Shown in pieces: positions 1,778 to 64,000 of a DNA stretch of 64,000 bases. The notes under the pieces are model-generated. The model had not been told where the DNA came from, made no database searches, and saw nothing but the letters and a program-made list of their open reading frames with translations. The DNA comes from Antitrichia curtipendula (lineage: Eukaryota > Streptophyta > Bryopsida > Hypnales > Leucodontaceae), in contig OX579633.1 in NCBI GenBank assembly GCA_951230915.1, positions 1,426,001-1,490,000 on the forward strand, read 5' to 3'. Numbering within the stretch: position 1 is the stretch's first letter; every line of letters begins with the position of its first letter. Both the position numbers and the translations under genes were made by a program.

Positions 1778-2088
1778 CATTACAAAAAATATGAGGCCTC
1801 AACAAGGCCGTGAGTGCTGATTTTCGGGACCCACGGGTGATATTACGGAAAAAAAAAAAAAAAAAAAAAAAATTGAAAAAAAAAACCTTTTTTTTTTTTT
1901 TTTTTTTTCCCGAAAAAAAAATTAAAAAGTGACGTCACGCTTATGTGGCGCTGACGTCAGCGCTGGCGTGGAACTTCGACCACGTCAGAATTTCAGTTTC
2001 TGAATTTTTTTTTAAAAAAAAAACTCCGTAGTATCACTACGGGGTCCAGGCTTAACGGCCTTCCGGAGGCCTCATATTTTTTGTAATG
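1778..2088. mobile_element. MITE-like element, copy 1 (CATTACAAAAAATATGAGG ends)
   Basis: The element starts CATTACAAAAAATATGAGG and ends with its reverse complement CCTCATATTTTTTGTAATG, giving terminal inverted repeats of about 23 bp. The interior is GC-rich against AT-rich surroundings, with long A and T runs and the palindromes GTGACGTCAC and GCTGACGTCAGC. It has no coding capacity, so it would be non-autonomous. A second copy lies in reverse orientation at 26692-26976. Both insertions read CAT-TA at the left and TA-ATG at the right. Either the repeat begins at CAT, or TA is the target duplication within a preferred CATTAATG site. The superfamily (Tc1/mariner-like or CACTA-like) cannot be settled from two copies. 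Confidence 0.8.
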
Positions 2089-4467: not shown

Positions 4468-7400
4468 ATGGCGGCATTAACTGATAATTTGACGTGTTCT
4501 TTAGTGAGGGGCAACAACTCCTCTTTGTCCGTTAATTACAGATTTGAGTCCAGCAGACTGTTCAATGTGAAGCGATCCAAGTGCTCAGGTATAGTTCGGA
4601 TCTCATGAAACTATAGTGTGCATTTGTTTCTATTTTTCTTGATCTTTTTTGTCTCTATCTTTTGTATTCAAATTTAATCTCTATCTAGCTTGCTTAACCC
4701 TAAATGCCCTAGCAGCACGTATATATATGTCTTGTTCATCCTGTTTCATTCATACGGAAGGTTCAAGGAAAATGCATCCAGTATATCCAATATTGGAATA
4801 TAGTTGGTTTTGCATTTTTTACAATTAGAAACTTCATTACTTGCTTTTCCATGTTATCGAGAAATTGAAATGCTCTTATATGTTAAATTTCTCTAAGAAA
4901 AATTAAATAATTTAGAGCACAATGTCCACAATTGGTAGGTTAAATGGTCGTTGTGAATTCTCCTCTAGGCCTCTTTCATCCTGTTAAATTATTTGGGTTT
5001 GGGCGAATAATTAAGACTTTGACGGTCTCATTTTCTGCTGATTGTGTAGTTTTGCTCCTGCTTGGATTCCTTTTATCTTGCTGGTAACGTCTACACAGAT
5101 TCAGCTGTTTGGACTTAGTGACTTTCGACGACTGAAAACTAGTGATGTTGTGATTGCTGTCATTCTATCTTATATGATTATATGCTTTCTGGATGTTTTG
5201 CAGTCTACCCAAGGGCATCTGGACAGTTGTTACACTCTTTGCGGACGAATGAATCATTTGGCGCTGCAGTAAGGTGATTTTCTTCGAAAGACCAATAACT
5301 ATTGCATTTTATCTGAATAGTGGTGCTGGAGATCATATACCTTAGGCTTTAGATCTCCGAAAATGGGGTGAACTTATTTCTTAGAAGATGCTATCTAGAT
5401 CCTCAGAAATTTTGGGTGTTTTCAAACGGTTTTGTGTGTTCTTTCAGGAAGTCATGGCCAAGACAACAGTCTTCGAAGAGGCTGGTTTGTTCGGCTATGG
5501 ATGCTTCGAAGGGTGGTTCGGATTCTGGTAGGTTCTGGCAGCTCGTAGATGTTTAGACAATGATCACTTTAGAAAATCAACTAAACAATCAGAACTTCTG
5601 TTTAACTATACTTTCCATTCTATGTTATGTCAACCACGATTTAATGTGCCTCCAAAATAGTGTCCCATACAGTTTATGCACTTGTTTTTGTTAAGTACTG
5701 TACTTGATTTAACTTGGTGACCATCAAAAGAGAGGAAAGAGGGCAACACGGTTTTAAAACGCACTAAATGATATTTTAATCGTATCTATCAAGACATGCA
5801 GTCATACACTAATGCATGATGCTCAAATTAGCATTCAACCTACAAAATAGTGTATCGTACACTAAATTAATAGACCGTGTATTGTCTCTACCCATATTTA
5901 CTTATCCATTGAAATATTTCACCAGTTTTTCCAAGACTGAACGTGCGAGACCCCTACAAGCGCTTGGGAATAAGCAGGGAGGCTGGGGAGGAAGAGATAC
6001 GGGAAGCCCGTAGCTACTTGGCCGGTCAGGTAGCTAGTTTATCTTCAGCGTTTATTGTCAATCATCGAAAGTGGTTTGTTTGGGTCATTGACAGACCTCT
6101 AAGAACGTTTGCTGCTATTAGTTTTCATAGACTATTGCAAATCGTATTCTTCTCCTGATAAACTGTCTTCTGTTGCTTCTTTTTTGCGTAGTACGGTGGC
6201 GATGCTAAAAGCATGGAGTCCATTGAATCAGCATATGATAAGATTATGATGGAGAAATTGCGTGAATACCAAAAACTGCAAAGTAATCCAAAGAAGCCGA
6301 AGGTGGTTAAGGAACTGCCCGCTTGGATGCAGAAGATAGTGAATATGTATCAAGTTCCGACTAAAGATGTAATTGCCCAAAGAGCTGTTTTTTACGTTTT
6401 ACTTGCATTGTGGAGTATCCTCCAACCTGGAAATGGAGGCCCTGCTTTTCAGGTAACTATCTCATTCAGCCAGGTCTCAAGTCAAGATCTTTCCATATGT
6501 TTTCTAGAGCAACTCAGCAGTTAATATCGACAACTTTGCCAATAGTTCCACTAGACTACCCTACTACGTTCTTGTATTATTGAACCATGACCAATTGATT
6601 AGGGCATCACCTTTTCAGTAGTTTTTACTATTTGTGCTTTGTTTCAATCCAGGTAAATCTTTCTTGGTCATTGTTACATCATATGAAAGGACTCATAAAT
6701 TCAATCTTTCAGAGATCATCTTTTCGTCGACTGTTCTTTTCTCAGTGGTCGTCTAGCACTTGATAGAACAATTGTTTACTGGTTTTCTCTCCAGGTGCTC
6801 ATGTCGTTTGTGGGATGTATTTACTTTCTCAATGACCGAACCAAGAAGTTGGTCAGATCTTTCTTCATCGGGTATGTTCCCAGATCTTCTCTTCTGTTTC
6901 TGCCATTTCTGGCATGATATCGTTCAGGATTTAAAATGAACGCATGTTCTGGCCTGGTGTGATATTTTGGGTACATAGTCAAGTACTCTTATTTTTGGAG
7001 GATGTTGTGTTACTTTGTCACAACCTAGTTATTGTTAGGGATCCCTGCCTATCATGTGTCTTGAATTCCAGTGTTCATCTTGCATCACTAAGAGACTCCC
7101 AAGTAGAGAACGAAGTTTTTAATGTTACCAGGCATTAGATTCATACAATACTCCTGTTGAATTAATGTTATGTTAATGTTATGTTAGTGTCACACACGTG
7201 TTTACTTGATGTTATTGTCCTTGGCATTTACTTGATATTATACAGGAGTCACATTAACTTGACATTATTTTAACGCTATTTATAAGACTGGTCTAATGTT
7301 CTCTTAGATTACCATCAATAATTTTGTGTTCTAGTAGATCTTTTGAGATGTGGTACTGTGCTCCCGATTACTAGAGAAGCATCAGATATGAGCTTCGTCA

Positions 7401-26691: not shown

Positions 26692-26976
26692 CATTACAAA
26701 AAATATGAGGCCTCCGGAAGGCCGTTAAGCCTGGACCCCCGTAGTGATACTACGGAGTTTTTTTCCAAAAAAAAAATTCAGAAACTGAAATTCTGACGTG
26801 GTCGAAGTTCCACGCCAGCGCTGACGTCAGCGCCGCGTCAGCGTGACGTCACTTTTTAATTTTTTTTTCGGGGGGGAAAAAAAAAAAAAAAAGATTTTTT
26901 TTTTTCCGTAATATCACCCGCGGGTCCCGAAAATCAGCACTCACGGCCTTGTTGAGGCCTCATATTTTTTGTAATG
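26692..26976. mobile_element. MITE-like element, copy 2 (inverted relative to copy 1)
   Basis: Reverse-orientation copy of 1778-2088, with the same CATTACAAAAAATATGAGG ends and the same GC-rich core including GCTGACGTCAGCGC and GTGACGTCAC. It is about 26 bases shorter, mainly in the A and T runs. It splits a sequence that is continuous in duplication block 1 near 18118-18150, so that site is a paralogous empty site. Confidence 0.8.
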
Positions 26977-51487: not shown

Positions 51488-53159
51488 ATGCTGGGAGGTT
51501 TGTATGGGGACCTGCCGCCCCCGTCTGCGGCAGGGGACGATGAGAGCTCGGGGTTGTCGTCGAACGGGGCTCTGGGGACTTCTGTGTGGAGTAATAACAA
51601 GCTAGCCCCTTCGAATGTGCGGAAACCGAGTTTTTTCGCTCCTCCGACGTCGGTGCTGCGCAATCAGGTGTCTGCAACGAAGCCGAAAGCAGCGGCCCCC
51701 GCAGTGCAAGGGTTGTTGGCGGCTTCGCGATGGACGAGTGATGATGTGCCTGCCACGCCGGAGAGGCCACATTCCCCGCCGGCGATACATCACGGGGCGG
51801 CTTTGATGGCCGTGAGTAGCCGAGTGCTGGAAGAGTACGATCCCGCGCGACCGAACGATTACGACGAGTATTGCAGGGAACGTCGACGGCGCAAAGTGGA
51901 GGAGGAGATGCGAATGGAGGTCGAGAGGCGGCGGCAGGAAGAGGAGGAGCGGGAGGAGGCCATGAGGCAGAGAGAGGGAGAGGTCGAGAGGGAGAGGGAG
52001 AGAGAGAGGGAGAGAGAGACCGAGAGGGAGAAGGAGCAGGGGTCTGAACAGCGGGCGGCGTTGCGGATTAGTGGCGAGGAAGCTTGGAAACGCAGGGCGA
52101 TGCTGTCTGCAGCTCGGGAGAGTCCAAGTCCAAGTCCGGCTCGAGCTCGCTCACCATCGCCACCAAAGAGTGGCGAAGGATTTAGTAGTGCGAACAAGCA
52201 AAGTTCCATGACTGCCGCGCAAAGGATGATGGCCAGGATGGGGTGGAAGGAAGGGCAGGGGCTTGGGAAACAAGAGCAGGGGATCACTGTGCCCTTGATG
52301 GCGAGGAAGACGGATAAAAGGGCTGGGGTCATCGTGAATGCAGCTCAGACGGCCGCTGTTGTGGACAAGAAGCCGGCTGTGAAGGGGGTCTCGATCTCTG
52401 GGCCGCCTACTCGAGTTGTACTGCTTCGAAACATGGTATGTTGTTTTCAGTTATTTCCCTTGTTTCGGTTCAGTGGTCTGAGTCCTAACCCCGAGATTTC
52501 TTAGCTTTAAAATGACCACTTGGATTGATCTGATTTTGAAATTTTTAATTTGGACAGTACCACTGAAGAGCATTGCATGTGTGGGTCAGTAAGTAAACAG
52601 AATTGAGCAAAAGAAAGTTCCCCATGTGACCCACTCAGAAGTGCTTAAAATCACGTTAGGGTTTAAAACCTTGAGTTGCACTGGGTTTAAGCTCGGCTTA
52701 AATTACGAAATCTTCTATTTGGAACATCGTTCGCTTGAATCAAGGTAGGCTGAGAATTGAAGTGCAGGTGAATGGAATGGGTCATATAACACGCATTGAT
52801 TGTGTTCTCAGAGACATGTGTAACCTTTCATTCACTGGTCTTCTTATTGGCAGGTTGGACCTGGGGAAGTTGATTCTGAGCTGGAGGACGAAATCTCGTC
52901 AGAGTGCTCGAAGTATGGGAATGTGACGCGGGTTCTCATTTTTGAGATTACCGAGCCAAATTTCCCTGCCACAGAAGCTGTTCGAATTTTCGTGCAATTT
53001 GAACGGTCAGAACAAACCACCAAAGCCCTCGTAGACTTGGATGGTCGTTTCTTTGGGGGCCGCGTAGTGAGAGCCAGCTTTTATGACGAGGACAAGTTCA
53101 ATAGGAATGATCTGGCACCCTCGCCAGGGGAGGTTCCTGCTGCATTACCTGAGTCCTGA
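51488..53159 (+). CDS. DRT111: DRT111/SPF45-type splicing factor (RBM17 family)
   Basis: Two exons (51488-52435 and 52854-53159, phase-0 GT-AG intron) give 417 aa. The N-terminus has GGLYGDLPPP, then a Pro/Ser-rich stretch with an ExYDPARPNDYDEY motif near residues 118-130. A highly charged Arg/Glu coiled-coil-like stretch follows at about 128-188 (a run of about six RE dipeptides). An SPSPSPARARSPSPP segment comes next, then a G-patch at about 241-285 (RMMARMGWKEGQGLGK). The C-terminal RRM of the UHM type is at about 308-398, with the ligand-binding R-x-F loop as GRFFGGR. In Arabidopsis this protein (DRT111/RSN2/SFPS) acts in early spliceosome 3' splice-site choice and in light and ABA signalling. 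The frame is intact. Start choice: the first ATG after the uORFs, giving the conserved N-terminus. Confidence 0.95.
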
Positions 53160-53342
53160 AACAGCTATGGATTTTCCTCACAATTTTGCCTGTAGCATAC
53201 TCCACCTTCTTGGGATCCATACTCTCTGTACTCGATCTTTGAAGAGGTCTCCATCCTTGTGTAGGTACAGTACAGGTCACAAACTATCTGCAGCAGTAGG
53301 TTAGTAAGGATACAATGCTAGTTTGAGGACTTGTGGAACCAA

Positions 53343-53684
53343 ATGTTTCGAATGTCTGACTTTAAGCTTCTTCACCGTCAACGTAATGTGATTCGCTCCT
53401 GGTTGGCTGATATTATTAGCGATAACAACACTGTTGAGCTTCGCGGACTCAGAGATGCGATAGTTTCACCCTTTGTCTTCCCATTTATGCAAAAAACGGT
53501 TCATCTCTATTCTGGCCTCAAATGCGAAAAGCGCTTCACGGGCAAACAATCTTCAGTCATTGAAGAGCAGGTTTCAGCACCGCTACGTTCACCAGAAACC
53601 AATCATTCAGCATTAGCAAAACCACAAGCGCCCCAAGAAATCAAAATGGGAAGCTTCGAAACCACTTCACGGTACTTAGTGTGA
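53343..53684 (+). CDS. Uncertain 113-aa ORF downstream of DRT111
   Basis: An open frame from ATG at 53343 begins MFRMSDFKLLHRQRN and ends TAG-free until TGA at 53682-53684. Base composition is closer to genes than to the AT-rich intergenic DNA. I see no known domain, signal peptide or membrane segment. It could be part of the DRT111 3'-UTR, an unannotated small gene or chance. The short distance (183 bases after the DRT111 stop) favours UTR. Confidence 0.2.
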   Translation: MFRMSDFKLLHRQRNVIRSWLADIISDNNTVELRGLRDAIVSPFVFPFMQKTVHLYSGLKCEKRFTGKQSSVIEEQVSAPLRSPETNHSALAKPQAPQEIKMGSFETTSRYLV

Positions 53685-54025
53685 GATACTGAGCATCATT
53701 CTCGCACTATTTGGAGCATCCAGACACAGCAGCAGAGTCGTTCTCTGCAGCACCATGTTCAGCAAAAAGTGGCATGAATTTGTATTGAGATGATCTGGAT
53801 GAAAACAATTACAGGTACGTCACTAAACTATCAAAAAAACAAAGTTCAACTTTGAGTAAATATAGAGCCGGGCTTCTGCACATTTGAACCCCCACTAACA
53901 ACAATGCTATCATCTTTCCACCAATCTGCACTCAACACCTGAATACAACAGTGGAAAACTCAGAAACTCAGGTATATTAACTCCAAACTTCTATTTTTCA
54001 CTCAAAGAAAAGCAAAGCTCCTGTA
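53685..54025. other. Intergenic DNA, no feature seen
   Basis: DRT111 downstream flank up to the Tc1-like element. Nothing recognised. Confidence 0.4.
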
Positions 54026-54502
54026 CAGTATCCGGAAGCAATGTTACGTAACTTTCAGTTTACTGCGGTGAGATTAAAAAAAGCAGTCAACTTCAAGTGA
54101 CCACCGTGAATTTGACTTTTGAGCAATTGCCATGGGATTTTCACTATGTTATTGGACTATGAGTAATCTTGTGAAAAATAAATTGTATGTGGATAATTAT
54201 CCAAAAAATCCACATAAAGTCATAGTTCTCTATTGCCTTATCCAAAGTGTGTCCACCTGGTTTTCATGCACTGGCTTCCGTTGGTCCTCATTGCAGCACA
54301 ATCGTGATTTGGATCATTGGTTTTTTAAAAGATATGTATGTGCTTTTGTATTGGGATTGCATTGTAAGTTGTTGGGATAACTTGTGATACGGTTGTACTA
54401 GGTGAATTTGTGACTTGGTTTAGTGTGAGGTGCATTTTTTTTGTTGATACAAGTTTGTTTGTTGTTGTGGATAGGTTTAGTGGCATTATTTGTTGAGAAA
54501 AA

Positions 54503-55235
54503 ATGAAGACTAGAGCGTTGACAGATGTTGAAAAAGAAGTAGTAGTTAGAATGCATAGAGGTGGAATGACAGGTGTGCAAATAGCAAGAGAATTAGAAAT
54601 GCCGCCTTCAATTGTTTATGGTATTCTACAAAGTTTTAAGAAATAAGGAACTGTAGTGTCACCAAAGTCACCGGGTAGGCCTCAAAAGCTTATAAAGCAT
54701 AGAATGAGACATCTAGAGTGCCTACTTAATGATGATTGTCATTTATCACTCACAAAGATTACAAATTAGATGGCAAATGTTGCACATGTTAGTTGTCGTA
54801 TTGTAAAGAACGCTTTGAAAACCCTTCGTTATAGATATCGTGTTGCAACAAAAAACATTTTTGAGTCTGAAGCACCAAGCAAATAGGCTAGCATTTGCTA
54901 GAAAGTACAAAAATTGGAGTGAGGAGGATTGGAAGAAAGTTATTTGGACTGATGAATCATCTTTTGAAATTGGAAGAAATTCTTGACAAATTAGGGTGTG
55001 GAGAAAAGCATATATAAGAGGTACTCATCTAAATGTCTAGCACCTATTTTCAAGTCTGGCCATACTTCAATGATGGTTTGGAGTGCTTTTAGTGGTTTTG
55101 ATAAGTCTCTTTTACTAATCATACCTCCACATAATAGAAGTACAAGTGATTTTGTTGATCTTATTTATGATGGCACTTTAAGTGGATTTTATTTTCTCCA
55201 CAATCATCCAAAAGACATTATACTTATGGAGGATG
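54503..55235 (+). pseudogene. Tc1-like transposase fragment, left arm (broken)
   Basis: Begins MKTRALTDVEKEVVVRM, a helix-turn-helix start with GGMTGVQIARELEMPPS, then the linker motif SPGRPQKL (a GRPR-type hook). The first catalytic Asp is in VIWTDESSFE, and the second is in the region read as DIILMED, after HNHPK. The frame is broken by TAA after SFKK, TAG after KITN, a frameshift near 54860, TGA after RNS and TAG after HLNV. No functional protein can be made. Confidence 0.85.
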
Positions 55236-55249
55236 GCACTCCCATACTT

Positions 55250-56277
55250 GATGAAGAGATTCTACCAATTCTTCTCTATTGAGTGATCGGGACGTAGGTT
55301 GAATTCTATTTTTCAATATCTTCCATAAGTTTTCTATTGGGTTTNNNNNNNNNNNNNNNNNNNNNNNNNNNNNNNNNNNNNNNNNNNNNNNNNNNNNNNN
55401 NNNNNNNNNNNNNNNNNNNNNNNNNNNNNNNNNNNNNNNNNNNNNNNNNNNNNNNNNNNNNNNNNNNNNNNNNNNNNNNNNNNNNNNNNNNNNNNNNNNN
55501 NNNNNNNNNNNNNNNNNNNNNNNNNNNNNNNNNNNNNNNNNNNNCATCCTCCATAAGTATAATGTCTTTTGGATGATTGTGGAGAAAATAAAATCCACTT
55601 AAAGTGCCATCATAAATAAGATCAACAAAATCACTTGTACTTCTATTATGTGGAGGTATGATTAGTAAAAGAGACTTATCAAAACCACTAAAAGCACTCC
55701 AAACCATCATTGAAGTATGGCCAGACTTGAAAATAGGTGCTAGACATTTAGATGAGTACCTCTTATATATGCTTTTCTCCACACCCTAATTTGTCGAGAA
55801 TTTCTTCCAATTTCAAAAGATGATTCATCAGTCCAAATAACTTTCTTCCAATCCTCCTCACTCCAATTTTTGTACTTTCTAGCAAATGCTAGCCTATTTG
55901 CTTGGTGCTTCAAACTCAAAAATGTTTTTTGTTGCAACACGATATCTATAACGAAGGGTTTTCAAAGCGTTCTTTACAATACGACAACTAACATGTGCAA
56001 CATTTGCCATCTAATTTGTAATCTTTGTGAGTGATAAATGACAATCATCATTAAGTAGGCACTCTAGATGTCTCATTCTATGCTTTATAAGCTTTTGAGG
56101 CCTACCCGGTGACTTTGGTGACACTACAGTTCCTTATTTCTTAAAACTTTGTAGAATACCATAAACAATTGAAGGCGGCATTTCTAATTCTCTTGCTATT
56201 TGCACACCTGTCATTCCACCTCTATGCATTCTAACTACTACTTCTTTTTCAACATCTGTCAACGCTCTAGTCTTCAT
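55250..56277 (-). pseudogene. Tc1-like transposase, minus strand across the gap
   Basis: On the minus strand the right arm repeats the N-terminal two thirds (ATG at 56277), with the same early TAA, TAG and frameshift as the left arm. Here the RNS codon is followed by CGA (Arg), not TGA. After the N gap the C-terminus continues at 55344-55250 with NPIENLWKILKNR, whose Glu is the expected third catalytic residue of the DDE triad. The spacing between the second Asp and this Glu lies in the gap, so DD34E or another class cannot be read. Confidence 0.8.
55345..55544. other. Assembly gap (200 N)
   Basis: Exactly 200 undetermined bases, probably a placeholder size. It sits at the centre of a long inverted repeat, a place where assemblers commonly fail. 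Confidence 1.
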
Positions 56278-56883
56278 TTTTTCTCAACAAATAATGCCAC
56301 TAAACCTATCCACAACAACAAACAAACTTGTATCAACAAAAAAAATGCACCTCACACTAAACCAAGTCACAAATTCACCTAGTACAACCGTATCACAAGT
56401 TATCCCAACAACTTACAATGCAATCCCAATACAAAAGCACATACATATCTTTTAAAAAACCAATGATCCAAATCACGATTGTGCCGCAATGAGGACCAAT
56501 GGAAGCCAGTGCATGAAAACCAGGTAGACACACTTTGGATAAGGCAATAGAGAACTATGACTTTACGTGGATTTTTTGGATAATTATCCACATACAATTT
56601 ATTTTTCACAAGATTACTCATAGTCCAATAACATGGTGAAAATCCCATGGCAATTGCTCAAAAATCAAATTCACGGTGGCCACTTGAAGTTGACTGTGCT
56701 TTTTCTAGTCTCACCACAATAAACCAAAAGTTACGTAACATTGCTTCCGGGTACTGTAGATCAATGGAGGCAACCACTCTTGGTCATTTGGTCACTTGGG
56801 GATAAATGATGTTAAACTCAATCATAAAAGCAACCTGCATGAATGTATATACAGACAATATTATCAGTCGAATTGCCCAAGAT

Positions 56884-57050
56884 CCTAGAAGAAACCCATG
56901 TTTTTCTTGAAGAATTATTTTGTGATGTCCACTTGTTTTTATGTTATGTTACAACTAACATCTTAATGTTATGTTTGATGTCATTGTGACATAAAAACAT
57001 GTGGATGTCACAAAAATGTGTCATAAAAAACACAAGTTTCTTCTAATGGG
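56884..57050. repeat. Foldback repeat, about 167 bp
   Basis: 'agaagaaacccatgttttt' on the left pairs with 'cacaagtttcttct' on the right, and 'ttgtgatgtccacttgtttttatg' pairs with 'cataaaaacatgtggatgtcacaa' inside (first 20 bases of each considered). It overlaps the last predicted residues of the unidentified exon series. Confidence 0.65.
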
Positions 57051-57876
57051 ATAATTCTAGAAAACCCAGCACCAAGGATGTACCAGAGACTTTGGTAAAG
57101 TATCTCTTGTGCACAAGGAGACAACAAACCTGATGAGCAAACACCTGATGAGTGACTCTATGCAAAAACTCAGAATTCCAACATATAGGAAAAACACGCA
57201 ATCAACAATCGTCCTGGCGAAATACCTGCTTTTCAATAGAAAATGACAGCGCAAGACTCCAATCGTCATTTTGAACCACATAAAAGCATGCTCCACCTGA
57301 ATTGAACTTTTCTTTTTCGATGGCTTGATGGATGTGTCCATGATCCTGAACAAACCAGATCAAAACGAAGTCAGATATTAGGCACAACCAAGTTCAACAA
57401 AACGGCGGTATTGTAGTTAGGAAGCTCTTGACCGTTACTGCTAAACATAAGAGAGGAATTACAAATCCCAAGAAGAAGTGAGGCAAGAACGACTGTTAAG
57501 AACTAAGGCCCTTTGCCTCCGCAATTTAGTACTTGACTGCCCGAGGGACTAGAATAGCTGCTGCAACACATTGGACTAATGCTGTATGTCCCTTTAGTTG
57601 CTTCAAACCTTAAGAAGGTCACACGAAGCCCTTCAATGTATACTTTTGAAAACTTGTGTCCTGTCGGGGTTAAAGCATTTAGACACAATGTCGTTGAAGT
57701 CGCTTCGTTCTGAGCAACCTGCAAAATCATGGGCATTAGGCATCACATTGTTCAAATAAGCACCCAATACTTCTTTCTATGAAGTGTAGAACAATGATGG
57801 CCATTTTCCCTTCAATCCAAGTGTCCCCAAATGGCTTCTTCCATATCTTTAGGATTTGAAACAAATCATTAGGAAG
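57008..57876 (-). CDS. Unidentified exon series downstream of SWI2
   Basis: Three minus-strand exons with clear splice borders keep one frame at phase 0: 57718-57533 (begins VAQNEATSTTLCLNAL, includes KVYIEGLRVTFLRFE), 57345-57226 (DHGHIHQAIEKEKF, then GGACFYVVQNDDWSLALSF) and 57157-57008 (SHSSGVCSSGLLSPCAQEIL, LWYILGAGFSRI, stop TGA). A possible earlier exon is 57876-57793 (LPNDLFQILKIWKKPFGDTW), but its donor GTTCTA is weak. Composition looks protein-like, with clustered aromatic residues and Cys. I do not recognise the family. It could be the 3' end of an unknown gene, a retained pseudogene, or alternative 3' exons of the SWI2 transcript. The last exon runs into a foldback repeat, so the end is uncertain. 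Confidence 0.35.
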
Positions 57877-58964
57877 CTGCACGGATGGTAACAAAACGTA
57901 ACAAAAGAAAGAAGAAATTAAGCCCTCCATACACGTAACGTAGAAATCTGATTTGGAAGTTATTAATGATGACTATTAGTTTCTAGACTGGACATTCTAT
58001 TTTATGTTTGGGCACTTTGGGGTTAACTGGAAACTTGATTCAAGTATTCACAGAAGGTTTAATGAGTTGTGATCACAGAGAGCAGGCAGTAAAAGAGGAG
58101 CATTTAGAAGTAAAGATTTGACCCAAATCTGGACACCAATGGGAATTTAAATCAAAGGATGGTATGTATAACCCACATGGATTATGGAACCCCCAAGTCT
58201 AAACCAAACTCAACCACAAGCAAAGATGGGTACAACTGGAAATACATGATGCAGAGTATGTGTCTGTTATGGTCATGCATACTCATAGAGTACGAGCAAA
58301 CATTTACGTGCCAAGGTTGTAACGGTCTCTGCAGTAAATCAAAACCATGTTTCCAAATGCAACATGGACCTGACATAACCCTGCTCTATATGTACATCAT
58401 AAAAGACTCCCCAGGATCGAAAAGTTGTAAATGTTTAGTTATAAGCATTAGATTCATACAAAAGATCCCCAATCATAGATTGAAAAGCTTTCCATGTTTA
58501 GTTAAACGGCATTAGATTCACACAATCTCATGCTGAGTAAAGGTTGTATTAATGTTAATGTAACACAAGTGGAGTTAACAAAATACAAGTGTGATGTTAG
58601 CGTTCTTGGCATTAATTTAATATTATACTACCATTAAGTAACCATTTAATCACTATCATCTTGCATTAGTTTAACATTATCTTAATATTAATCTAATATT
58701 CCATCAGTTGAACATTAACTTATCAGCAATAGCACGGGAAATCTAATAAAGGATCGTATTGAGAAATGAAAGTAAGTACGAACATAAAAGATTAAGCGAA
58801 AAGATAACGAATCGAACCTGGAGCAGGTACTGTATGGGGGCGATTGATTGTTAAAACACCACTGTAACTTCTAGTGAGAATAAATTGTTCAATGGAAGTC
58901 TTCAGAAACTCGCCGTCGACCAAAAATTCGAATGGTCACAGATTTTGTATAAAATAGAAATAAT
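57877..58964. other. SWI2 3' flank with repeat
   Basis: 58440-58740 is the 'TTAATGTTA' repeat related to the CPP1 intron (7126-7345). A 118-codon plus-strand frame at 58159-58515 shows no known motif. A donor-like 'CTCCAG|GTTCGA' on the minus strand near 58819 may mark a 3'-UTR intron or an exon of the unidentified downstream series. Confidence 0.4.
58440..58740. repeat. 'TTAATGTTA' dispersed repeat
   Basis: 'cattagattcatacaaaa' at about 58446 and 'cattagattcacacaat' at about 58508 start two adjacent partial copies. Both are followed by reiterated 'ttaatgtta'/'taacattat' motifs as at 7126-7345. Confidence 0.6.
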
Positions 58965-61900
58965 TTACAGAAGACTCAGACTGTCGATCACTTCAAGAGT
59001 ACAGAGGCCACTGGTAGCTAGAAGCCATTTTGTTGTCGCATCCATCTCCCCATACTTATGTGGCTCCTCTAATTCCTCTTGTTTGCTGTTGGCCTCCACT
59101 CCAGTTTGGTGCACTTTCTCTGGCGGGGCATTGACGGTAGAGGCTTCTTCTTCTTGAATGGTTTGTTGTTGATCAACAACTGGAGAGTTGTTAGAAGTCA
59201 AGCTTTTCTGGTCTCCAACTGGACTACGCTGCACTCTTGCCTTGGACCTCTTGCGCTTCTTCGACACTCCTACCACTTCCTCATTCCGGTGGGCATAAAT
59301 AACACCTGCAAGTATTACAAGAGAATGTGTGTTAATGCCAGACAGTGCTTTCTCGAATTAATATAGAGGATACTGAAACCGTTAAAGACCTGATGCTGGT
59401 TCCTATATTACCCCTGTTACCAACAGGAATTCATCAGGTAATTCAGGAATTCATACACTTCGTTGGGCTTCAATTAGCAAGTGGCGTAAGCATGACTTGA
59501 CTAAATGTATATGGTCACTAATCTTTTTAATGGAAATGGGGATGTCCATTATCACTTACAATGGCCTACAACCTCCCACTTTCAAATTGCATAAGAAATT
59601 CATACGTAGTGATAAAATTTTGACCTCAAATGGTTTTGGCTCGTGTACCCAATAATCACTCCACAGCTCAACAGTGATATCCCAAAAAATCACTTCAACA
59701 TATGCTGACATGCTTAGAGTGAAGCAAATAGTATCATCTACCTTACAAGGAGACCTCCAACACCGATCTACTCAAACTTTCAGAATGCAAAACAAAATAA
59801 AAAGAGTCAGAAAGACAAAAATTGCCAACGGAGTTCGCTAAGAATGATCTTCACAGCCACTGCCAGTTTTGCAAGATCTTGGGGGGTGTCAGTCAAGTCA
59901 CATGTAACACCCAAAGTGGTCTGAGCTGCTTACCTGCATCTTTCAACATGTCCTCGTACTGGCTTTCAGAGTTGTTTTCGATTTTATCTGTACTTGCACT
60001 TTGCACTTCAGATGACTCACTGTCCTCAATGTCGTCTTCAAGTTCACCTCTTGAGCCAAGTGAATCGTCGGAACAGCGAATGTCGTCTACTTCAGCTTCT
60101 TCAATGTGTTTGCAGCTCATAGTCTTTTCGTCGATGACTTCTGGCTGAGTACTGTTCCCAAGAGAATTCAATACTGGGCTGGTGCGATGAATACCTGTCG
60201 CTCTCTCATCGTGCTTTTCAATGATGTCGCTCGTAAAAACGGTTGCCGAAAGATCCCGGAACAAATTACTGATCCCAAAAAGCTCACCCTTATGCATTTT
60301 TGAGTCCTGCAGATTATCAATGCAAAGGCCGTCAAAAACAACAAAAAAACAACTAGTGCAAGTGACAAGTTTAAAAATTAGCCAACAATGAAGAAAAGGA
60401 ATTCCTTTCCCTTCTTATCAATATATGTGACTACAAGGAAGTCAACCGTAAGGTGGTGCTTTCAGAACGGAGGTGGATAAAAATTTAACTTTCCATTTGG
60501 ATAGACATTACCCTCATCTATTTGTGAGAAATTCTATGAAGTGAAAAAGAGTTCTGTATCTATCTAAAGAGATAAATCAACGACAAAAAAAATCAGAATC
60601 AGATGAGAAACTGGACTTCTCTTAATTTACCTGGACACCTTCAAAGTAGCGCTTCTCAAATGTACCATTAACGCCGATGTTGAATAGCTGCTGTTTGTAT
60701 ATCTGACGAGAATAAACAAGCTCCTCTATTGATCCTGCAGCTAGTAGCCTGTACACAGTAACGTGCCGTCGTTGCCCATAGCGGAAGGACCGATCTTGCG
60801 CCTGCAAATCCTGGGCAGGGTTCCAATTGGGGTCGAAAATGACCACCCTATTGGCACTCACAAGGTTGAGTCCTAATCCACCCGCCCGGGTGGAGATCAA
60901 AAACACCTGAATCCGTGCAAAACATCAGAATAAGAAAGAGTCATATCACTGAAAATTCATATAAGCAATAAACTAACAACTAAGGTAAATTACCGGATTG
61001 AGGAACTTGTCAAAGCAATTAGACTATTCATAACAAATGCGTAATCTGGATATTGACGCCAAGTTCCTAGAAGCTCGAAGGAGATTGAGTGTATATATCT
61101 CCAAGAATGTATAATACTTCGGCGTGTGCCACCTACTAAAATCAGTAGCTACACTGTGATACTTCCACATGCCTCCAAAACCTTCCAATAAAATGCAATG
61201 GATGATAGTCCAGGATCCTAACAAAATAGATGAAATTTTACCTGCTTACTAGGGCTATTATTGAATTCGTCCACCAGGGTCTGACGCAAACCCATTGGAG
61301 TGGATCCATCAAGGCGACAGAAGCTGTAAGCCTTTCGCACCATGAACCTATCCAGAATATCCAGCATCCTGCAAAAGGCCATTGTTGTCAATCGTACTTT
61401 CCTACGACAACATGAAAACTGCAGACGTATCAATAATTGGTCGGCGGAAATAACAGCACTCACAAAGTTTTGGATAAAATCATCAATCAAGAGAACACTC
61501 TGAGGATACCGACCATTATAAGCAAACAAAGAGGGTGAGAACACTAATCTACACAGAACCGTCAGAACACTGATCATACAAATGATGCCCATCCATATGC
61601 AGTACAGAAGCCATGAAACTAAAAAATGTGAGCAAGAAAACTAAAAAATTAATTCGAGAACTCACTTAACGGAGTAGCTGAAAAGGAGAACTTTGTCTCC
61701 TTTTGATAGCCAGGTCCCCAGCAGTTTTTCCAGTGCTCTCATTTTGCCACAATGCTGAGCATCACTTAATCCCATAAAGCTCTCATCCTGTTGCACCCCG
61801 CCAACCAGCACTGCATCCTCACCAAGTGCAGCTGAAGCAAACCGTTCATCCTTTTTTTGTTTTTCCGGGTCATCCTTTGAACTAGGTTTGATCAACTCCA

Positions 61901-64000
61901 AATGATTACTCACCTACACAGCAGTCATACAAGATACTTGAGAATGAAATTCATCAACACCACTGGGGCCCTTGAAGAAGCAAGTAACATGGTCCGATGC
62001 ATTGAACCTTACTCAATATCTGAAAGATCGATAGACCAGAATCCAAATGATATCTAAGAATTAAAAAGAGGAATCATTCTGGTAATGAAATCCTGTTGAG
62101 TCCAGAAAACCCAGACCAAAACGTAGTCTTTGGCACAATCAATCTAAGTGATTTAGTAGTGATATAGTAGCGACTTAGTCGGTTGTTTGTGAATATTCTA
62201 AGTCACTAAGCCACTACTATATCACACTGGAATGTTCTAGCACTTTCCTTTCTTTTTAATGAAGAGTGGAGACACCTAACTATCCTATAACTCTCAAGTT
62301 GCTGTATTAGGAGAGGATTGCAGAGCTTGAGGACAACTACAAAGTGCGCCAAAACTTTAAAGTAGCATACAAGAGTCAAAGCAAAAGATCACCACAAACC
62401 TGCTGAAGCTTAGTCAAGCATGGGAGAACGATGCAATAAGGGCACCAGTCACAGCCATCAGGGTCTTCCTGATGTAAATATGACCAAATGACACCATCAG
62501 GAGCCGTTCGATGGCAACACTCCACACGAGTTAAGTGACTGCCACAGCTACATGGCGAATCCTTGCTGATAAGAAGCTGGAAATCAGGACTTTGAAGTAG
62601 CCTTCTATACACTCGAGTCTGCACATCACTCATCTTACAAAACACAACGTTGTCGGCTTTGCCTCGCATTAGATGCCCAATGGTTTCTTGTTTTGTTCGA
62701 CGAAGTAGGTGACGACTGAGAACCTTCACCTGCAAGAGAGTACATACGTCTCTGTCATCGCACGGACTAAATCGTACACAAGTAACAGAATCGGTTGAAT
62801 TGAAACATTTCTAAACTGGGCATTTTTAAACCATGAATCCTTGCTCCCTGAGGGGTCAACCGCAGGGTAACTTTGTCTCCTTTTTCATACATTAGGTAAA
62901 TGACACACATGCCGAAAGAACAAATGAACCTCAAAAAGAAGCATCTAGTTATCAAGAATCTTACCAAATGTTGCTTCCGCTCCTCAGCAATTTGTACGAA
63001 ACGCTCAGGTGCACTTATACGTTGACCTTGCTTCAGAGGCTCTCCATAGTATTCCTTAAAATGCTCGCGCGGACCCAGGCTACCCGGGGCGGCCCAATCG
63101 AAAACATTAAACATCTCAGAGTAATTATTTTGCATGATCGTTCCAGTTAAACCGTACCGGCGCTTTGTCTTCATTTGAATGCAAGCCTTGTAGAGCTGGG
63201 ACTTGTCGTTTTTCAAACGGTGAGCTTCATCTACTACCACACAGTCCCACTTGATTTCGCAGAGGGCAGTCAGATTCAGCCGAAACATATCATGGCTTGT
63301 CAGTAGCACCTGTGTCCATCGACACCCTCTGTCAGTGTCAAGGTAACTAACAGCTTCGCAAAATCTTTAAAAACGAGCAGCCAAACAGTCGACCAGATGA
63401 ACTTCCACAAAGATCCAGTCAAACCATTGAGAAAAAGGAAGAAGATGCTCAAGTTTACAAGCAAACATGAACACTAATGCAACATCTAAAGGAAGATATG
63501 CAACAAAACAATATGGGGAGGTAAGGTATGTGATACTAAAACCGTTAGGGACCTGATCCCGTCTACGATACTGACCCGTGCTACCAACAGCAACTCGTCT
63601 ATTCATACACTTCATCGATCTTCAACATTCTGACCATAAGTACGAATGACTCGGCTAAATGTGCATCTTTGAAAGGAAATGAGGTTGTCTACTGTCAGTG
63701 ACAGTGATCTACAACCTCCCCATTTGAAATTGCATATGAAATTCATATATAGTACTAAAAAATCAACGGATTTGGCTCTTGTACCCAAAGTGATATCTCC
63801 ACAGCTCTATGGCGATCTCCCAAAAAATCACTCCTACATATGCAAAAATGCGTAAAGTGTCACAAAGTACTTTCGACTTTATAAACAAGCATCGGCAAAG
63901 TAATACACGCACCTCTAGCTCATGGGCCCGGACTTTGTCCAAAACCGCGTCCCTGTTGACTCCGTGATAGATCCCCACCCTGAACGACCCCCACGCTTGA
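58965..64000 (-). CDS. SWI2: SWI2/CHR9 (ERCC6L2-like) SNF2 ATPase, 5' part cut off
   Basis: Eight minus-strand exons join in phase to the last 708 aa: 64000-63913 (partial), 63309-62965, 62729-62400, 61913-61666, 61368-61242, 60906-60631, 60306-59934 and 59305-58965. The window opens inside lobe 1 (FRVGIYHGVNRD). Motif II is DEAH (63231-63220) in DEAHRLKN and motif III is LTGTIMQN. A Cys-rich insert follows (CSCGS, ECC, CDWCPYC), probably metal binding. Lobe 2 has LLFSYSV, FCRLDGSTP, LISTRAGGLGLNLVSANRVV (motif V) and QAQDRSFRYGQ (motif VI), then ELVYSRQIYKQQL. The tail has GELFGISNLFRDLS and an acidic Ser-rich stretch, and ends with TKWLLATS. Plant SWI2/CHR9 is the ERCC6L2-like chromatin/DNA-repair translocase, so a nuclear role is inferred. 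Walker A lies beyond the right edge. All visible introns are GT-AG. Confidence 0.93.
59368..59733. repeat. Intronic repeat, copy in SWI2 intron before last exon
   Basis: 'gatactgaaaccgtta', 'gacctgat', 'ctaccaacag'-like, 'cctacaacctccca', 'aaattgcataagaaattcat' and 'atcccaaaaaatcact' occur in the same order and orientation as at 63531-63870. Non-coding. Confidence 0.8.
63531..63870. repeat. Intronic repeat, copy in upstream SWI2 intron
   Basis: 'gatactaaaaccgtta', 'gacctgat', 'ctacaacctcccc', 'aaattgcatatgaaattcat' and 'ctcccaaaaaatcact' match the copy at 59368-59733. It lies in the intron between the first two visible SWI2 exons. Confidence 0.8.

What the first reader, a model, noticed from the sequence alone, without database searches (positions are those of the whole stretch)
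54026..56756. Tc1-type element arranged as a 1.2-kb-arm palindrome around a gap
Two inverted copies of the 5' two thirds of one transposon face each other, with only one C-terminal piece between them and TA duplications at the outer ends. This is either a genuine foldback element, able to move as one unit because both outer ends are intact inverted repeats, or a misassembly of one element. If it is real, transcription would give long double-stranded RNA.
Basis: partly seen in the sequence, partly recalled or inferred. Interest (0 to 1): 0.75.

Follow-up and report, generated by a model that had tools for sequence, protein, structure and literature searches.

The report
Inside-out palindromic Tc1 transposon in moss
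In a moss genome one old, apparently dead jumping gene has lost its tail and instead carries a mirror-image second copy of its own front part, an arrangement that could make a self-pairing RNA hairpin like a known natural transposon silencer of maize, although nothing here shows that it is transcribed.

Summary
The palindrome is there and is probably real. Arms 54026-55235 (+) and 55545-56756 (-) are 98.5% alike (16 substitutions, one 2-nt indel), with a C-terminal transposase piece and 200 N between them and TA outside. The host is a moss (inferred from a neighbour gene). The element is Tc1-like; ordinary copies in the same genome are about 1.7 kb. Both outer ends here are 5' ends; the normal 3' end, seen at 6 of 10 other loci, is absent. 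The inversion junction lies inside a contig, over 3 shared bases (TCC, 55240-55242), and the sequence beyond the gap continues that copy in order. The arms differ by 5.2% in the outer 272 bp but 0.2% inside, not what a duplicated contig would give. A second copy (L021) also lacks the normal 3' end and has a 200-N gap. No complete transposase frame was seen. Closest analogue: maize Mu killer, whose centre also resisted PCR. Best reading: a foldback template-switch derivative with later conversion between arms. Silencing and mobility are untested; searches for the junction elsewhere, a stray 3' half and the empty site did not complete.

The parts
54024..54025 (.). left TA (target-site half)
   Evidence: sequence; most ordinary copies also have TA at the tips
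54026..55242 (+). left arm: 5' end and transposase start through the second catalytic D, reading rightwards; last 3 bases (TCC) shared with the reversed piece
   Evidence: 5'-type end (score 50 to 5' ends, 9 to 3' ends)
55240..55344 (-). C-terminal transposase piece (NPIENLW..., third catalytic E) belonging to the right copy
   Evidence: (DDE_3, weak, below its cut-off)
55240..55242 (.). 3-base microhomology TCC at the inversion junction
55345..55544 (.). 200-N gap; 9 ordinary-orientation copies compared have 91 bp (7), 90 bp (L010) or 64 bp (L008) between arm end and C-terminal piece
55545..56756 (-). right arm: 5' end and transposase start, reading leftwards
   Evidence: 5'-type end (57 against 11)
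56757..56758 (.). right TA (target-site half)
51488..53156 (+). neighbour gene: splicing factor 45 / DRT111-like (two exons matched), pointing towards the palindrome
58968..63366 (-). neighbour gene: SNF2-type helicase pieces (SNF2-rel_dom, Helicase_C, VIGSSK), taken as one gene by inference, also pointing towards the palindrome

Best explanation
A real, old, non-autonomous 5'-5' derivative of a PpTc2-like Tc1 transposon in a moss. Most likely, during replication or repair of an element copy, a strand being synthesised from the 5' end (right side) ran to about position 1,410, folded back and primed on itself near position 1,219 using TCC. It then copied itself back out to the 5' end, and was joined at the left flank, replacing the 3' end. 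That leaves a palindrome with about 1.2-kb arms and an expected loop of about 190 bp (if the gap hides what ordinary copies have there). The inner arms were later homogenised by conversion between the arms, while the outer 272 bp kept diverging. Shown: anatomy, end types, junction, divergence pattern. Inferred: the foldback step, the conversion, the gap content. It has two TIR-bearing ends and lies between two converging genes, so a hairpin RNA is possible; this is untested.
For: Both ends 5'-type, while 6 of 6 ordinary 3' ends score 3'-type. Junction inside a contig with 3-bp microhomology. Across the gap the same copy continues, with about 91 bp missing. 14 of 16 arm substitutions in the outer 272 of 1212 bp (P 6e-8 for even spread; the border at 272 was chosen after seeing the data), while other copies diverge from each other by 7.6% in the inner part. 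19 alleles seen in both arms and in no other aligned copy, 3 of them in positions 76-272. A second copy without the normal 3' end and with the same kind of gap.
Against: No reads were available. The gap hides the centre, so arm continuity across it is inferred from order only. The right contig begins within about 7 bases of the arm end, a coincidence that an assembly effect could cause. A 3-bp microhomology is weak evidence. The outer divergence could come from two different source copies instead of conversion; positions 1-75 hold no allele private to the pair. The second copy's left end matches neither end type in direct orientation (7 against 7); only its reversed tail matches its own 5' end. 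The searches for a stray 3' half, for the junction elsewhere and for the empty site did not complete.
Confidence: 0.7

Rival explanations
1. Two separate, nearly identical elements in convergent orientation lie here; the assembly lost both 3' halves in the gap, and the inverted C-terminal piece at the end of the left contig is a snap-back chimera.
For: The gap is of round size (200 N here and at L021), so its true length is unknown; each arm has its own TA and TIR.
Against: Needs a chimeric contig end whose order happens to continue into the right contig. Inner arms 99.8% alike while the other copies are 7-10% away (L010 is an outlier because of a deletion).
Confidence: 0.15
2. Misassembly of one ordinary element (one copy duplicated or folded by the assembler).
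For: The gap lies in the centre, and the right contig starts almost at the arm end.
Against: Left and right flanks differ, both are joined to a 5' end, and the arms carry separate mutations, 14 of 16 in the outer part. No 3' end exists at either side.
Confidence: 0.1
3. A variant of the best explanation: the palindrome is real, but the outer 272 bp of the arms come from different source elements, and no later arm-to-arm conversion took place.
For: Positions 1-75 of the two arms differ as much as between separate copies (9.6%) and hold no allele private to the pair.
Against: Positions 76-272 share 3 private alleles, and over 76-262 the arms differ less (3.2%) than either does from any other copy with data there (6.4% or more).
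Confidence: 0.25

Closest known systems
PpTc2 / Tc1-like elements of the moss Physcomitrium (Physcomitrella) patens (PMC4054914; parts 1 and 2 of 5 read)
   Same: CAGT tips, TA, about 1.7 kb (PpTc2 1,709 bp; PpTc1 1,584 bp), transposase of 338 aa, DD34E. P. patens Tc1-like protein P0127 (338 aa) is 62% identical to a 252-aa piece from ordinary copy L012; unnamed 341-aa relatives reach 76-85%.
   Different: PpTc2 has one 5' and one 3' end and intact copies; this copy has two 5' ends, and no complete transposase frame was found in the loci examined. Whether P0127 is PpTc1 or PpTc2 was not tested; 'PpTc2-like' rests on length and is inferred.
Mu killer of maize (PMC3440606; abstract, passages and section 12 read)
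   Same: Both TIRs come from the same end of the element; partial transposase gene as an inverted duplication, about 1.3 kb into it; centre could not be spanned by PCR.
   Different: Mutator superfamily, not Tc1; shown to silence its relatives. In that paper silencing went with short antisense transcripts starting inside Mu killer, and read-through sense transcripts with failure to silence. Here expression and silencing are unknown, and the family seems dead.
Long-TIR Tc1/mariner elements (Bari with 255-bp TIRs, PMC4877112; aphid LTIR elements with about 460 bp, PMC5490172; passages read)
   Same: Inverted repeats longer than the usual about 30 bp.
   Different: There the long TIR is a feature of a family or several copies with a transposase gene between; here one locus, arms including the transposase start, no complete gene.
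Foldback-like elements (Galileo; PMC3573991 and PMC3688188, abstracts in search listings only)
   Same: Very long inverted arms.
   Different: Galileo is of the P-element superfamily with internally repetitive TIRs; this is Tc1-like and one search found no repeats within one arm.

Membership tests
Tc1-like elements (Tc1/mariner superfamily) | TA at both tips | tested here: met
   (54024-25, 56757-58); ordinary copies
Tc1-like elements (Tc1/mariner superfamily) | terminal CAGT and TIR of about 33 bp | tested here: met
   for the window; some other copies have decayed tips (L003, L006, L008, L013)
Tc1-like elements (Tc1/mariner superfamily) | DD34E transposase | tested here: inconclusive
   met in ordinary copy L012 (34 residues counted by me between D2 and E; DDE_3 7e-14); in the window copy the spacing is hidden by the gap
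Tc1-like elements (Tc1/mariner superfamily) | one 5' and one 3' end | tested here: not met
   both ends 5'-type; 6 of 10 other loci show a normal 3' end
Mu killer-type inverted derivative | both ends from the same transposon end, with the partial transposase gene inverted | tested here: met
Mu killer-type inverted derivative | hairpin or antisense transcript and silencing of relatives | not testable with these tools
   no RNA data
Mu killer-type inverted derivative | derived from MuDR (Mutator superfamily) | tested here: not met
   transposase is Tc1-like (window pieces weak)
Foldback / Galileo elements | internally repetitive long TIRs | tested here: not met
   only two short two-copy direct families in 53000-58000, neither with both copies in one arm
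mobile unit or MITE family | more than one copy of the same palindrome | tested here: not met
   12 matches to the 5' end at 11 loci, only this locus with two full arms; the direct junction search did not complete

The most novel reading that the evidence does not exclude
A natural Mu-killer-like locus of a Tc1 transposon in a moss: transcripts from within the palindrome or from the converging neighbour genes give hairpin or antisense RNA whose small RNAs shut down the whole family. The second copy with 5'-derived sequence at both ends would mean that such inverted derivatives arise repeatedly.
Probability: 0.12. Interest if true: 0.75.

Novelty: new variant of a known kind. Interest (0 to 1): 0.42.

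Why it matters
If real, it shows that a Mu-killer-like architecture (two identical ends, inverted transposase) also arises in Tc1-like elements and in a moss. It also offers a test of whether self-made hairpins are a general route by which plants silence cut-and-paste transposons. It adds a practical warning: both gaps met in the fetched copies of this family fall in the two copies with 5'-derived sequence at both ends (2 of 2, against 0 of 9 other loci; after-the-fact P 0.018), so such elements may be broken or missed in assemblies. How common gaps are in this genome was not measured.

Tried and rejected
Chance: rejected (1.2-kb arms). Single-element misassembly: disfavoured. Arm divergence explained by a faster-evolving outer region: other copies are more divergent outside (14.5% in 1-75, 9.2% in 76-272, 7.6% in 273-1212; L009 and L010 left out), not nearly enough for a difference of about 25-fold. 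The Fisher test (3e-8) used 262 as outer denominator, typed by hand; the positions compared are 270, so take instead. All 16 arm substitutions are transitions, but pairs of other copies are mostly transitions too, so this is no special sign. C-to-T excess at CG (left arm 16 of 54 CG, 8 of 48 CHG, 25 of 371 CHH sites) holds in all 11 rows counted (L010 left out), so it speaks for methylation of the family, not for silencing by this locus. Transfer-RNA scan and Rfam at gathering scores: nothing. A junction-spanning ORF (54998-55282) searched against proteins found 4 relatives, none with the junction. The regular-expression end typing did not discriminate and was replaced by alignment scores. Literature: ten searches, some on side questions and several with capped lists; in what I saw of them, no Tc1/mariner copy with two 5' ends and 1.2-kb inverted arms was described. 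That is no proof that none is in print.

Full report
WHERE. The window is C1:1,426,001-1,490,000 of a 400-Mb genome in 303 contigs. The neighbouring splicing-factor-45 gene is most like moss proteins: an unnamed protein at 91%, Ceratodon purpureus at 81% (best named hit), Sphagnum jensenii at 64%.

OBSERVATION. The inverted repeat is real in the sequence: 54026-55235 and 55545-56756, 1210 and 1212 bp, 16 substitutions and one 2-nt indel. Between them lie a C-terminal transposase piece on the minus strand (NPIENLW...) and exactly 200 N at 55345-55544. TA stands at each outer tip.

WHAT IT IS MADE OF. A search with the left arm gave 47 matches (40 of 78 candidates scored, so a lower bound). Two are this locus; then come matches of about 88-91%, and a more distant group of mostly 67-76%. 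The 272-bp 5' end has 12 matches, at 11 loci: this one and 10 others. Copies L003, L004, L005 and L006 run about 1.7 kb from tip to tip; L010 is 1.4 kb; others are interrupted. Tips are mostly CAGT with TA outside, with decay in some (L003, L006, L008, L013). The 252-aa transposase piece of L012 matches DDE_3 and HTH_Tnp_Tc3_2 above their cut-offs. It is 62% identical to a Physcomitrium Tc1-like transposase of 338 aa, and 76-85% identical to unnamed 341-aa proteins. Its D2-to-E spacing is 34, counted by me. This resembles the description of PpTc2: 1,709 bp, 33-bp TIRs, CAGT, 338 aa (PMC4054914, parts 1 and 2 of 5 read). The likeness to PpTc2 and not PpTc1 (1,584 bp) rests on length alone. No complete transposase frame was seen in the loci examined; the longest piece is 252 aa (which looked only at frames holding chosen transposase motifs).

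TWO FRONT ENDS. Beyond the shared TIR, the 5' and 3' ends of ordinary copies are unrelated. By alignment score both window ends match 5' ends of other copies (50 and 57) and not 3' ends (9 and 11), while 6 of 6 ordinary 3' ends behave the other way. So the 3' end is absent and its place is taken by a second 5' end.

JUNCTION. After ...GGAGGATG the left arm continues as ordinary copies do (GCACTCC), then turns at TCC (55240-55242) into the reversed C-terminus (TCCCATACTTGATG...). Of 9 copies compared, 7 have 91 bp between the base where the right arm starts and the C-terminal piece, L010 has 90 and L008 has 64. The gap therefore most simply hides that stretch, and the loop would be about 190 bp (inference; 200 N is a round number and says nothing of true length). 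The inversion junction lies within one contig and does not depend on the scaffolding; the right contig continues the same copy in the right order.

DIVERGENCE. 14 of 16 substitutions lie in the outer 272 bp: 14 of 270 compared positions (5.2%) against 2 of 940 inside (0.2%) (P 6e-8 for even spread, with the border chosen after seeing the data). Positions 1-75 differ by 9.6% and 76-262 by 3.2%. The two arms share 19 alleles seen in none of the other aligned copies, 3 of them in 76-272 and none in 1-75. Measured against the majority of the other copies, 10 of 16 changes fall to the left arm and 6 to the right. At several of these positions the other copies vary; alleles found in one arm alone are 4 substitutions plus the indel on the left (49, 52, 77, 93) and 4 on the right (32, 41, 122, 231), all in the outer part. 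This fits an old inverted duplication whose inner arms were later homogenised, or, for the outermost bases, different source copies. It does not fit one sequence written twice by an assembler.

SECOND CASE. Locus L021 (C6:20,692,000-20,701,999) holds a copy from 4610 to 5862 with TA on both sides and a 200-N gap at 4674-4873. Its right end is an ordinary 5' end. Its left end is a TIR followed by 32 bases identical to the reverse strand of its own 5' subterminal region; read directly, that stretch matches neither end type (7 against 7), and it is not the ordinary 3' end. Its hidden interior is unknown, so whether it is a palindrome is open. Of 11 loci, these two have 5'-derived sequence at both ends and these two have gaps; the 9 others have none in the stretches fetched. 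In 3 of those 9 (L007, L008, L011) the 3' end was not seen.

MECHANISM. Foldback priming of a strand with a large loop is documented in yeast: with MRE11 and SAE2 intact, hairpin loops had a median of 36 nt and could reach many thousands (PMC7467729, passages). Abortive gap repair after excision is a known source of rearranged transposons (I know it from recall and from a reference in PMC4877112; that paper not read). I infer such a foldback here. Two TA-flanked 5' TIRs mean either that the palindrome later moved as a unit, or that the left end was joined by TIR homology; I cannot tell which.

FUNCTION. Maize Mu killer has the same plan: both TIRs from the mudrA end, an inverted partial transposase, an inversion about 1.3 kb in, and a centre that resisted PCR (PMC3440606). 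The same paper also cautions against a simple read-through model: silencing plants had short antisense transcripts starting inside Mu killer, while read-through sense transcripts were found where silencing failed. Here the palindrome lies between converging genes, splicing factor 45 ending at 53156 and SNF2-type helicase pieces ending near 58,968. There are no RNA data. All 11 rows counted, these arms included, show C-to-T change concentrated at CG sites, which suggests that the family was methylated; this does not single out the palindrome as the cause.

VERDICT. Probably a real 5'-5' inverted derivative of a Tc1-like moss transposon: a new variant of a known kind, of moderate interest, with a hidden centre that only reads can settle.

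Noticed in passing
L021:4610-5862 (C6:20,692,000-20,701,999): Second copy of the family without the normal 3' end and with a 200-N gap; 32 bases of its left end are the reverse strand of its own 5' subterminal hairpin region.
   Followed up: partly
L007, L008, L011, L013/L012: Copies whose element sequence is interrupted (about 0.4-0.9 kb insertions in L007, L011, L013/L012) or whose 3' part runs into other sequence (L007, L008, L011); L007's runs into CTCCCTCCGTCCCA, which I recall as typical of Stowaway-like MITEs.
   Followed up: no
window 51488-53156 and 58968-63366: Splicing factor 45 (DRT111-like) and SNF2-type helicase pieces with a VIGSSK domain point at each other across the palindrome.
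   Followed up: partly
window 1778-2088 and 26692-26976: A 0.3-kb inverted repeat pair, 87% alike, 24.6 kb apart, probably another dispersed repeat.
   Followed up: no
window 56886-57045: Small imperfect hairpins (arms of 37 and 27 nt) just right of the palindrome, possibly a MITE remnant.
   Followed up: no
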